Positions 10,253-62,375 of a DNA stretch of 64,000 bases are shown in pieces. Source of the stretch: Bradyrhizobium prioriisuperbiae (lineage in GTDB: Bacteria > Pseudomonadota > Alphaproteobacteria > Rhizobiales > Xanthobacteraceae); the NCBI RefSeq assembly GCF_032397745.1, contig NZ_CP135921.1, positions 1,736,001 through 1,800,000 on the forward strand. The letters run 5' to 3'. The stretch's first letter is position 1. Each line of letters starts with the position of its first letter. Below the pieces are notes generated by a model. It was given only the letters and a program-made list of their open reading frames with translations. It was not told the origin of the DNA and did no database searches. A program made the translations under genes and the position numbers.

Positions 10253-10410
10253 TGCTCGGGCCGCCTTACAGACTCAACTCGCTTGCCGGCGTGGGTCATC
10301 GAAAAAGCGAATACGGAGATGCCTGCAGGATAGCGACGAACCGATCCGCAACCTCGCGTAACCGGATTGCTGCACCTCTCCGAACTCTGCCTGTTCCCTC
10401 CCCCCTTGTG

Positions 10411-11699
10411 GCAGGGCTGTCCCGGGAAAAATCACGCATAGGTGAACCCCAGCTGATCGGGAGAGAACCTGGGTTTTGGCCTGCTCGGATTGACGGGTGG
10501 CGGGGTGTCAATTTCTGCGATCGGTTTTCGCATGAACAGGCGTTGGCAAACGAGCTCAGCGAAACGTAGCTGCAGCATCGGCAAGGAATTCAGACGCCGC
10601 GCGAGGCGCAGGAGCAGATAGGCGATCATCGCGGCTATGATTTGCAGCCGAATGGCGTTGTCGTTCTTGCCCATGAACTTGTGGAGGTTGAGATGCTGCT
10701 TGATCCAGCGGAACAGGAGCTCGATCTGCCAGCGGCTCTTGTAGAGAGCCGCAATCTCGACTGCCGTGCGTTCGAGATCGTTGGTGATGAGAGTGATCAT
10801 TCCCCCTTTGTCACGCCTGACCTTGATGCGTCGCAATGGGATCGGCAGACTGGAATCGCCCTTGCTGGCGAGCGAGACATTGGCATCGGCGATGACTCTG
10901 AAGCCGTCGCCTATGGTCTTGCGCACGTACCGGGACTTTGTCATGCGCAAGCGCGTGTTCACCTTGACGCGGGTGACGAAGAAAGCCTTGGCAGCATTGA
11001 TCTTCTTCCACCAGCCAAAGTGATAATAGCCCTTGTCGAAAACGTAGGTCGCACCGGCTTCCAGCTCCGTTTGACGGCCGATCTCGACGTCATTGACGGT
11101 CGCCGGCGTAATCTCGACACAACGCGGGACATCGTTCCCTGGATGATAGACGACGTGCATCTTCAGGCCGCGGATACGGCCATTCCATTCGGCCCATTCG
11201 CACATCTTGCCCAACGGCACCGGGCTCGAGTCGATCAACCGAACCATCTCGGCCCCTTCCACCCGCGTGTGTCGATCGGCCTTCTTTGCCAGCATCGCGA
11301 AAGTTTCCGCGAAAATACTCACCGGACGACGTGCATTCGCACGCGAGAGTGTCGAGCGAGGGGTCTTGCCTACACCCAAATGATAATGCTGATGGGAGTT
11401 TGCCTTAGAGGTCGCTTCCACAGCGCGCAGGCTCGTGACCCCGCCCAATTGGGCGCCCACCATCGCCACAAGATGATCCCAGCTTTTGAACGTCTTGTCG
11501 TAGGCATTACCGTTATGTCGCTCGACGATTTCCCGAAATTGTCGTCGATCAATCGGTTTGAGGAGCTCCCCAAAGATGCTATTCACGTATTGCATGCCCG
11601 GCCCTTTTCTGTGTCTCGACAACCAGAAAGTATCCGGTTCACGCTGGAGTCGCCGGGCATGCGCTGCGGCATAGTGAATCATTCCCGGGACAGCCCTGC
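10411..11699 (-). mobile_element. IS4-type insertion sequence, 1289 bp
   Basis: The ends are perfect 18-bp inverted repeats, GCAGGGCTGTCCCGGGAA at 10411-10428 and its complement at 11682-11699. The element is flanked by a 7-bp direct repeat CCTTGTG (10404-10410 and 11700-11706). Removing the element and one repeat restores CCCTCCCC-CCTTGTG-GGGGAGGG, a symmetric hairpin whose loop is the duplicated target. One intact transposase gene fills it. The intact ends, intact transposase and perfect duplication suggest a recent insertion. Confidence 0.93.
10432..11595 (-). CDS. IS4-family transposase
   Basis: This 387-residue DDE transposase cuts and joins the ends of its element. Catalytic aspartates are in LIDSSPVPLG and VFDKGYYHFG, and the IS4 YREK signature is intact as YKSRWQIELLFRWIK (Y-x2-R-x3-E-x6-K). 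The start MQYVNSIFGELL at 11595 lies inside the element; a longer frame to 11751 would run out through the inverted repeat and is not used. The stop lies just inside the left inverted repeat. Confidence 0.93.
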   Translation of the reverse strand: MQYVNSIFGELLKPIDRRQFREIVERHNGNAYDKTFKSWDHLVAMVGAQLGGVTSLRAVEATSKANSHQHYHLGVGKTPRSTLSRANARRPVSIFAETFAMLAKKADRHTRVEGAEMVRLIDSSPVPLGKMCEWAEWNGRIRGLKMHVVYHPGNDVPRCVEITPATVNDVEIGRQTELEAGATYVFDKGYYHFGWWKKINAAKAFFVTRVKVNTRLRMTKSRYVRKTIGDGFRVIADANVSLASKGDSSLPIPLRRIKVRRDKGGMITLITNDLERTAVEIAALYKSRWQIELLFRWIKQHLNLHKFMGKNDNAIRLQIIAAMIAYLLLRLARRLNSLPMLQLRFAELVCQRLFMRKPIAEIDTPPPVNPSRPKPRFSPDQLGFTYA

Positions 11700-11740
11700 C
11701 CTTGTGGGGGAGGGTCAGGGAGGGGGGTGAGTGACGCTGT

Positions 11741-60824: not shown

Positions 60825-60912
60825 TCATGCCCGCGCTTGTCGCGGGCATCCACGACTTAACGGTGACTCAGCAAGGCGTGGATGCCGACACCAAGTGCGG
60901 GCATGACGGAGC
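60825..60912. repeat. Inverted dispersed repeat
   Basis: GTCATGCCCGCGCTTGTCGC…GGGCATCCACG and CGTGGATGCCGACACCAAGT…GCGGGCATGACGG face each other (60827-60912). Together with a REP half at 60950-60966 it fills the space between the cyclase and the IS481-type element. Confidence 0.75.
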
Positions 60913-60971
60913 GGAGAAGATACGCTTGCGCCCATCACGAGGGCCTCCGTTTACTGGATCGCCCGCTTTCC

Positions 60972-62241
60972 TGTTTAGCCCGGACAGATCACTGACAGGT
61001 GTTCGGAGACATAGCTAACACGTCAAAATGGCTGGATTGGTCCTGTTTGGGAGGCCCTTTCCATGCCCTGGCGCGAGGTGTCGGCGATGGATCAACGACG
61101 AGAGTTTGTGCTGCTTGCACAGCAAGAGGGAGTGAACCGGCGAGAACTCTGCCGGCAGTTCGGCATCAGTCCATACATCGGCTACAAATGGCTGGCTCGC
61201 TGGCAAACGGGCGATCAAGAGCTGGCCGATCGTTCCCGCCGACCGCATGCGATGCCCAAGCGCAGCGACGCTGCAATCGAGGCGCAGGTACTGGCTGTTC
61301 GTGACAAGCATCCGGCCTGGGGAGCACGCAAGATTGCCCATTGCCTGAAGCGGGGTGGGCAGACGGTGCCTGTACCGTCCACGGTGCATCAGATCCTGTG
61401 TCGGAACGGCCGGATCAAGCCGAGCGAGCATGCGCCGCCAAACCCGGGCCATCGCTTTGAGAAGGAAGCTCCCAATCTGTTGTGGCAGATGGACTTCAAG
61501 GGCGACATCTTGCTCACCAGTGGGAGGGAATGCCATCCGCTGACCGTCGTCGATGATCATTCGCGCTATGCTCTGTGCTTGAAGGCTTGCGCCAACGAGC
61601 AGCGTCTGACCGTGCAGGAACATCTGACAGCCACCTTTCGCCGTTATGGCCTGCCAGAGGCCTTCTACACCGACAACGGCTCACCCTGGGGCGACACGTC
61701 CGGCGTTCATTGGACCGGACTGAAGGTATGGCTGCTCAAGCTCGGCGTCAGGGTGGTGCATGCCAGACCGCGCCATCCGCAGGCCCGCGGCAAGAACGAA
61801 CGCTTCCATCGCACCCTGAAGGCGGAGGTGTTTGCCATGCGTCGCTTCCGCACCCTGCCGGAAGTCCAACGAGCCTTCGACGCCTGGCGGATGGTCTATA
61901 ATCTGGAGCGTCCTCATCAGGGGCTCGGCATGAACGTCCCTGCCGATCGCTTCCGGCCCAGTTCCCGCGCCATGCCGCCTCGACTTCCCGAAGTCCAATA
62001 CGACAGCGGCGACATCGTTCGTAAGGTCTCGTCGACGCGCAGCTACATCTCCTTCAAGGGGCGGATGTGGAAGGTTCCGCAGGCATTCTTTGGTGAGCGC
62101 CTCGCTATCAGGCCGCTGGACCGTGACGGGCACTATGGAATCTTCTTTGCCAGTTGGCAGGTCGCAACGTTTGACTTGACCAATGGCCAACCTGTTAGTG
62201 ATGTGTCCGAACAGGTGTTAGCTATGTCTCCGGGCTAAACA
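60972..62241 (+). mobile_element. IS481-type insertion sequence, 1270 bp
   Basis: The left end TGTTTAGCCCGGACAGATCA (60972 on) matches the complement of the right end (TGTTTAGCCCGGAGACATAG, ending at 62241) over about 41 bp with some mismatches. A 5-bp direct repeat TTTCC flanks it (60967-60971 and 62242-62246). Removing the element restores TCGCCCGC-TTTCC-GCGGGCGA, a REP hairpin whose loop is exactly the duplicated target. The transposase is intact, so the insertion looks recent. Confidence 0.92.
61063..62238 (+). CDS. IS481-family transposase
   Basis: This 391-residue DDE transposase opens MPWREVSAMDQRREFVLLAQ with a helix-turn-helix (REGVNRRELCRQFGIS-like). Catalytic residues are D in LLWQMDFKGD, D in YTDNGSPW and E in GKNERFHRTLKAE. 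Its TAA stop lies inside the right inverted repeat, as is common in compact insertion sequences. It is a different type from the transposase at 12185-13387. Confidence 0.94.
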   Translation: MPWREVSAMDQRREFVLLAQQEGVNRRELCRQFGISPYIGYKWLARWQTGDQELADRSRRPHAMPKRSDAAIEAQVLAVRDKHPAWGARKIAHCLKRGGQTVPVPSTVHQILCRNGRIKPSEHAPPNPGHRFEKEAPNLLWQMDFKGDILLTSGRECHPLTVVDDHSRYALCLKACANEQRLTVQEHLTATFRRYGLPEAFYTDNGSPWGDTSGVHWTGLKVWLLKLGVRVVHARPRHPQARGKNERFHRTLKAEVFAMRRFRTLPEVQRAFDAWRMVYNLERPHQGLGMNVPADRFRPSSRAMPPRLPEVQYDSGDIVRKVSSTRSYISFKGRMWKVPQAFFGERLAIRPLDRDGHYGIFFASWQVATFDLTNGQPVSDVSEQVLAMSPG

Positions 62242-62375
62242 TTTCCGCGGGCGATGACAGCTGAGAGTGGGATATCCGCATTTGCAGACCAGTCCTTCGC
62301 ATAGAACCACGCCGTTGACATCACCCGGCGGATGTTGATCCTGCGTCCACCCTAACATCATCGCGCGCGGCCCCC

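What the first reader, a model, noticed from the sequence alone, without database searches (positions are those of the whole stretch)
60967..62246. IS481-type element also inserted exactly in a hairpin loop
The 5-bp duplication TTTCC equals the loop between TCGCCCGC and GCGGGCGA of a REP-type unit. The transposase is unrelated to that of the IS4-type element at 10411, yet the geometry is the same. Two independent cases in 64 kb hint that extruded palindromes are general landing sites here.
Basis: partly seen in the sequence, partly recalled or inferred. Interest (0 to 1): 0.72.

Follow-up and report, generated by a model that had tools for sequence, protein, structure and literature searches.

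The report
Jumping gene targeting hairpin-repeat centres
A bacterial jumping gene of the IS481 family lands in the middle of short palindromic repeats, and the few bases it duplicates are 4 or 5 long to match the centre of the particular palindrome; landing in such repeats is known, the matching of duplication length is the unusual part.

Summary
An IS481-family element (window 60972-62241) splits a REP palindrome and duplicates its loop, TTTCC. All 4 copies found in this genome sit exactly on a palindrome axis (chance about 0.0005 per copy). Among related elements (transposase at least 57% identical), 24 of 28 distinct targets with an exact duplication are centred. The duplication is 5 bp when the axis lies on a base and 4 bp when it lies between bases, and identical copies make both (5, 4, 5 here). 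Of 48 copies in 11 element groups whose ends I could set in this genome (17 more were unresolved), 16 are palindrome-centred (0.17 expected): 15 of 17 in five groups, 1 of 31 in the other six. So palindromes are preferred by some families, not generally, and the IS481 copies use one repeat class (CGTC-type REPs), not any hairpin. REP targeting is known for several families and was reported for an IS481 element in Pseudomonas in 2024. I did not find in print that duplication length follows the palindrome axis. Extrusion is not shown; sites with unpaired inner arms favour recognition of two symmetric half-sites in duplex DNA.

The parts
60958..60966 (.). Left arm of the split REP palindrome (ATCGCCCGC)
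   Evidence: 9-bp stem with 62247-62255; (L003) score 9 at offset 0
60967..60971 (.). Left copy of the 5-bp target duplication TTTCC = loop of the palindrome
60972..62241 (+). IS481-family insertion sequence, 1270 bp, ends TGTTTAGCCCGG / CCGGGCTAAACA
   Evidence: 4 copies found in the genome (three at 100%, one at 70%)
61063..62238 (+). Transposase ORF, 391 aa, HTH domains and rve integrase core
62242..62246 (.). Right copy of the target duplication TTTCC
62247..62255 (.). Right arm of the split REP palindrome (GCGGGCGAT)
60827..60849 (.). Intact CGTC-type REP nearby, ATGCCCGCG[CTTGT]CGCGGGCAT: an unoccupied unit of the same class
   Evidence: zero-based start 60826 there
10412..11698 (-). Comparison element: IS4-family insertion sequence with 9-bp duplication (10403-10411, 11699-11707) centred on CCCTCCC...GGGAGGG

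Best explanation
This is an IS481-family element whose transposase uses REP palindromes (CGTC class) as its target. Shown: all four copies found in the genome and most near relatives sit exactly on the palindrome axis; the duplication is 4 or 5 bp according to whether the axis falls between or on bases; identical copies make both lengths. Inferred: recent activity (three identical copies); and that the two transposase active sites are each positioned by one arm of the palindrome and cut just inside it, about 9 bp from the outer end of the arm, so the stagger between the cuts stretches from 4 to 5 bp with the spacer instead of being fixed by the enzyme. I think recognition of the two arms as half-sites in duplex (possibly bent) DNA is more likely than recognition of an extruded hairpin.
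For: Own genome 4 of 4 at offset 0, score 9. Relatives at least 57% identical: 24 of 28 distinct targets with an exact duplication have a palindrome (score 5 or more) at offset exactly 0; parity table 12 odd/odd, 11 even/even, 1 discordant, Fisher 9.6e-6 (this is the centring seen at half-base resolution, not an independent test). Same-genome copies make both lengths: L001/L002/L003 5/4/5 (100% identical), L006/L081 5/4 (no mismatch over 1270 bases), L007/L082 4/5 (99.7% over 1285 aligned bases including some flank; L082's palindrome is weak). IS4-type elements in the same genome keep 9 bp (5/5) or 10 bp (4/4; one of these four is not on a palindrome) and are 0.5 bp off the axis in L132, L134, L180 and L183. 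Half-site reading: in L025 and L026 (ATTGC GAGC[GMAG]YGAR GCAAT) the inner four bases do not pair, yet the duplication is centred, 4 bp from ATTGC/GCAAT as in the fully paired sites. Arm positions 4, 5 and 8 carry sequence information (1.47, 1.49, 1.37 bits); positions 1-3 and 6-7 vary (0.55-0.91 bits) but stay paired in 20-25 of 27. An intact unit with the L002 target sequence exists in a relative (L274).
Against: The conserved arm bases may only reflect the REP family consensus. Purifying selection removes insertions in genes, which inflates the share in intergenic REPs (it does not explain base-exact centring). Three near-clade targets do not fit (L012, non-palindromic; L086, off by 2.5 bp; L091), and L082 is centred but weak (score 4). 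In more distant relatives only 2 of 8 pass the local null, and some sit 0.5-2 bp off the axis (L054, L063, L066, L075) or, by eye, 2-3 bp off (L245, L248, L260). 14 of 50 distinct targets showed no exact duplication (three of these had doubtful ends). Against the half-site reading: duplication equals loop in most centred sites, which extrusion also predicts.
Confidence: 0.6

Rival explanations
1. The transposase recognises the extruded hairpin or cruciform: each 3' end of the element attacks the 5' edge of a single-stranded loop, so exactly the loop is duplicated. This was drawn as a hypothetical 'pathway c' in the IS1272 paper (PMC5678879).
For: Duplication equals the innermost loop in 18 of 24 centred sites of the first count (10 of type 5/5, 8 of type 4/4); different stem sequences are used, including CCCTC-class palindromes and, in Paraburkholderia relatives, CTTTG/CAAAG stems.
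Against: In L008, L025 and L026 the paired stem ends 2-4 bases away from the duplication, and in L223, L057 and L059 the duplication includes paired bases. The four copies of this genome all use one class of hairpin out of several.
Confidence: 0.27
2. Selection only: insertions happen anywhere, and those in intergenic REPs survive.
For: REPs are mostly extragenic (PMC1525189, Discussion read); groups with no palindrome preference also exist here.
Against: Selection cannot place insertions on the axis to the half base; DDE_e, with 8 copies in the same genome under the same selection, has 0 of 8 centred.
Confidence: 0.03
3. The REP halves are carried by the element rather than being a target.
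For: All four own copies are flanked by REP arms.
Against: Arms differ between identical copies (ATTGCCGGG, ATCGCCCGC), and intact units without the element exist (L274).
Confidence: 0.02
4. The transposase makes 4- or 5-bp staggers at random and only appears to match the palindrome.
For: Some insertion sequences have slightly variable duplications (recalled).
Against: A random choice would put about half the insertions 0.5 bp off the axis; among near-clade sites with a palindrome of score 5 or more within 3 bp, 24 of 25 are at 0 and none at 0.5.
Confidence: 0.05

Closest known systems
IS481-family element of Pseudomonas fluorescens SBW25 (PMC11708052, mBio 2024; section 8 and passages read)
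   Same: Same family; [quoted passage not shown] four established copies show a putative 4-bp duplication.
   Different: The REPs are Pseudomonas ones. The authors conclude that in the new insertion the 4 bp were copied with the element and that it has no duplication. In what I read there is no statement on the palindrome axis or on duplication length following the loop; its sequences were not compared here.
REP-recogniser insertion sequences (Tobes and Pareja 2006, PMC1525189; Results and Discussion read): ISPsy8, ISRm22, ISPpu9/10, ISPa11, ISRm19
   Same: All copies of an element in REPs at one position; ISPsy8 and ISRm22 insert at the palindrome axis.
   Different: Families named are IS3, IS110, IS4, IS256 and IS5; IS481 does not occur in the text. 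One duplication length is given per element (3 bp for ISPsy8, 6 bp for ISRm22, 2 bp for ISPpu9/10).
ISRm20 (Sinorhizobium meliloti, IS481 family)
   Same: An annotated ISRm20-family relative is 68.3% identical in DNA over the full length (H4).
   Different: Its insertion sites were not examined; the S. meliloti loci held (L041-L043) end at contig ends and were dropped.
IS1272 (IS1182 family; PMC5678879; abstract and passages read)
   Same: Targets inverted repeats of different sequence.
   Different: It removes the stem-loop and leaves no duplication; here the stem is kept and the loop duplicated.
IS1397 and ISKpn1 (IS3 family)
   Same: Insert specifically into REP sequences of enterobacteria, as stated in PMC1525189.
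   Different: Different family; their duplications were not looked up.

Membership tests
IS481 family | Transposase passes the family model | tested here: met
   NF033577 269.8 bits, cut-off 224; rve core, HTH domains and LZ_Tnp_IS481
IS481 family | Terminal inverted repeats beginning TGT and short duplication | tested here: met
   TGTTTAGCCCGG/CCGGGCTAAACA, 5 bp; that this is usual for the family is recalled
IS481 family | Catalytic DDE triad individually identified | not tested
   only the domain match was made
[quoted passage not shown]
   4 of 4 copies found
CGTC-tagged REP (target; PMC3733652) | CGTC/TGTC tag, stem 8-9 bp starting AT, loop 4-5, tail CCA | tested here: met
   On the minus strand the split unit reads TGTC ATCGCCCGC GGAAA GCGGGCGAT CCAG; definitions from passages, the figure consensus was not seen
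IS1272-type stem-loop replacement | Target stem-loop lost, no duplication | tested here: not met
   both arms kept and 4-5 bp duplicated
Cruciform-directed transposition | Requires the extruded structure | not testable with these tools
   needs supercoiling or arm-mismatch experiments; indirect sequence evidence is mixed

The most novel reading that the evidence does not exclude
A DDE transposase that reads the two hairpin tips of an extruded REP and duplicates exactly the single-stranded loop, so that duplication length is set by DNA structure and not by the enzyme: the 'pathway c' that was only drawn as a possibility in the IS1272 paper.
Probability: 0.22. Interest if true: 0.8.

Novelty: new variant of a known kind. 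Interest (0 to 1): 0.52.

Why it matters
The stagger of a DDE transposase is usually treated as a near-fixed property of the enzyme (general knowledge, not looked up). Here the same element gives 4 or 5 bp according to the palindrome, next to IS4-type elements in the same genome that keep 9 or 10 bp on similar targets. That is a natural comparison for how transposases measure their target. It also suggests that one genome offers separate palindromic repeat classes to separate element families, which would keep insertions out of genes.

Tried and rejected
Considered and rejected: REP arms as part of the element; selection alone; random 4/5-bp stagger (see rivals). 'Any hairpin will do' rejected for the genome's own copies because all four use the CGTC class, a minority of background hairpins. 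Looked for an orthologous empty site with the joined flanks in 391 genomes of the family (two candidates scored per genome, match list cut): none seen; only an intact repeat elsewhere (L274). The pattern TCGCCCGC-N5-GCGGGCGA has no intact copy in the genome. Family PF00872 (IS256-type): no match in the genome.

Limits of the genome survey: only PF00665, PF01609, PF02371 and PF00872 were searched, so other transposase families are not covered. The 66 places found (15, 43 and 8) are 65 copies, since one broken IS4 copy gives two places; 48 were resolved. Unresolved 17: IS110 type 8 (L201-L208), L161, L163, L169, L170, L175, L185, L200, L209, L221. Of the 48, 11 had no duplication found and were tested at the bare junction.

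Other drops: three loci with wrong or doubtful ends (L068, L069, L071) left out. The class and phylum searches gave mostly distant relatives whose ends could often not be set; only L223 was added to a count. Partial matches were not analysed; some (G390:C9, G348:C31) end at or next to contig ends, so I did not read them as miniature elements.

Full report
What is there. Window 60972-62241 is a complete 1270-bp insertion sequence with ends TGTTTAGCCCGG and CCGGGCTAAACA and one transposase ORF of 391 aa that passes NCBIfam's IS481 model. It is flanked by TTTCC on both sides. Without the element the site reads ATCGCCCGC-TTTCC-GCGGGCGAT, a 9-bp stem with a 5-base loop, and the duplicated bases are exactly the loop. 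On the minus strand the unit has the tag TGTC, AT at the outer stem end and the tail CCAG. This matches the CGTC-tagged REP families described by PMC3733652 (passages read), which have loops of 4 or 5 and stems of 8 or 9.

The same element elsewhere in the genome. The genome (one contig of 9.08 Mb) holds four copies by DNA search, three identical and one 70% identical. All four split a palindrome exactly at the axis: CTTGA in ATTGCCGGG/CCCGGCAAT, GAAA in ATCGCCCGC/GCGGGCGAT, TTTCC in the same stem, and TCAAG in ATCACCGGG/CCCGGTGAT. The second copy has a 4-base loop and a 4-bp duplication although the element is identical to two others. An intact unit of that target sequence, with loop TTTC on the other strand, lies in a relative (L274).

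Relatives. A search of 391 sampled genomes of the family found matches in 83 (two candidates were scored per genome, so copy numbers are lower bounds), and a scan of genome contigs gave 46 loci. Among loci then held with a near-complete transposase match, 75 had both ends by rule and four had none. After dropping 8 at contig ends and 17 with identical target sequence (some the same locus from two collections), 50 distinct targets remained: 36 with an exact duplication of 3 bp or more and 14 without, three of the latter with doubtful ends. Of the 36, 24 had a palindrome of score 5 or more centred exactly. Restricting to transposases at least 57% identical and duplications of 4 or more, and adding L223 from a later search, gives 28 targets: 24 centred exactly with score 5 or more, one centred but weak (L082), and three that do not fit (L012, L086, L091). 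Against all other axes in their own flanks, 22 of 28 lie in the top 0.1%. Among more distant relatives 2 of 8 do, and several sit off the axis by 0.5-3 bp. Exact centring is thus a property of the near clade and of some Burkholderiaceae elements (L057, L059), not of the whole IS481 family.

Duplication length. In the near clade, duplications of 5 go with an axis on a base (12) and duplications of 4 with an axis between bases (11), with one exception, L086. Same-genome copies make both lengths: L001/L002/L003, L006/L081 and, with a weak palindrome in one, L007/L082. IS4-type elements in the same genome behave differently. One keeps 9 bp in 5 of 5 and another 10 bp in 4 of 4; where the parity of the palindrome disagrees they are half a base off (L132, L134, L180, L183), and one 10-bp copy (L182) is not on a palindrome. 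So in the IS481 element the stagger adapts, and in the IS4-type elements it does not.

Structure or sequence. Loop and duplication coincide in 18 of the 24 centred sites, as expected for cuts at the edge of an extruded loop. But in L025 and L026 the four bases on each side of the duplication do not pair, in L008 two do not, and in L223, L057 and L059 the duplication reaches into paired bases. In L025 and L026 what stays constant is the distance of 4 bp between the duplication and the outer arm (ATTGC/GCAAT). Arm positions 4, 5 and 8 carry most sequence information, while positions 1-3 and 6-7 vary in sequence but mostly stay paired (27 sites). I read this as two half-sites, each placing one cut, with a spacer of 4 or 5. 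The caution is that REP units are a family, so their consensus alone could give part of this pattern.

Is it general in this genome? I set ends for 48 copies in 11 groups, out of 65 copies found by three transposase domain searches; 17 stayed unresolved, and families outside the four domains searched were not covered. Eleven of the 48 had no duplication and were tested at the bare junction. Sixteen are centred on a palindrome (score 7 or more within 0.5 bp), against 0.17 expected from 40,000 random positions: IS481 4/4, IS4_a 5/5, IS4_c 3/4, DDE_i 2/2, DDE_g 1/2, DDE_b 1/4, and none in DDE_h 0/7, DDE_e 0/8, rve_cd 0/5, DDE_d 0/5, rve_a 0/2. DDE_h is in a palindromic repeat in 6 of 7 but 5-6 bp off the axis, at TTAG. 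The centred IS4-type copies and DDE_i use CCCTCCCC or CCTCTCCCC palindromes; the IS481 copies and L210 use CGTC-type REPs. Groups with two copies (DDE_i, DDE_g) carry little weight. Group names other than IS481 and IS4_a are my labels; their families were not tested beyond the domain match.

Compared with what is known. REPs as targets were established by PMC1525189 for five families, with ISPsy8 and ISRm22 at the axis. An IS481 element in P. fluorescens SBW25 was reported in REPs, with a putative 4-bp duplication in four copies and none in the new one (PMC11708052). Structure-dependent targeting with loss of the stem-loop was proposed for IS1272, where duplication of only the loop was drawn as a hypothetical branch (PMC5678879). 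In ten paper searches I saw no report that duplication length follows the palindrome axis; beyond the papers named here and PMC5082802 (passages) I saw only listings, and the library lacks most subscription journals. I therefore call this a new variant of a known kind.

Noticed in passing
L212-L218 (seven copies, own genome): A 1.5-kb element (DDE_h) duplicates TTAG inside GGCGGGTTA..TAACCCGCC-type palindromic repeats in 6 of 7 copies, 5-6 bp from the axis: REP targeting without centring.
   Followed up: partly
L164-L168 (own genome): A 1.35-kb rve-type element (duplication 3 bp in three copies, 2 bp in one, none in one) sits, by eye, beside and not in CCCCCTCCC-type repeats in all five copies.
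   Followed up: partly
L219, L220 (own genome): A DDE_Tnp_1 element with ends CGGCTCTC..GAGAGCCG duplicates CAGG/CCTG, exactly the 4-base loop of CCTCTCCCCG/CGGGGAGAGG, in both resolved copies.
   Followed up: partly
L011, L055, L064: The two loop copies flanking the IS481 element are reverse complements instead of direct repeats, perhaps from recombination between oppositely oriented copies.
   Followed up: no
L017 (G089): A second copy of the element's right end, 71 bp further on, with the same REP half behind each.
   Followed up: no
L057, L059-L061, L070 (Paraburkholderia): Related elements duplicate 6 bp at the centre of CTTTTCTTTG/CAAAGAAAAG palindromes, a quite different repeat class.
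   Followed up: partly
L012/L038: One near-clade element lies in a non-palindromic site with an exact 4-bp duplication, so the palindrome is not absolutely required.
   Followed up: no
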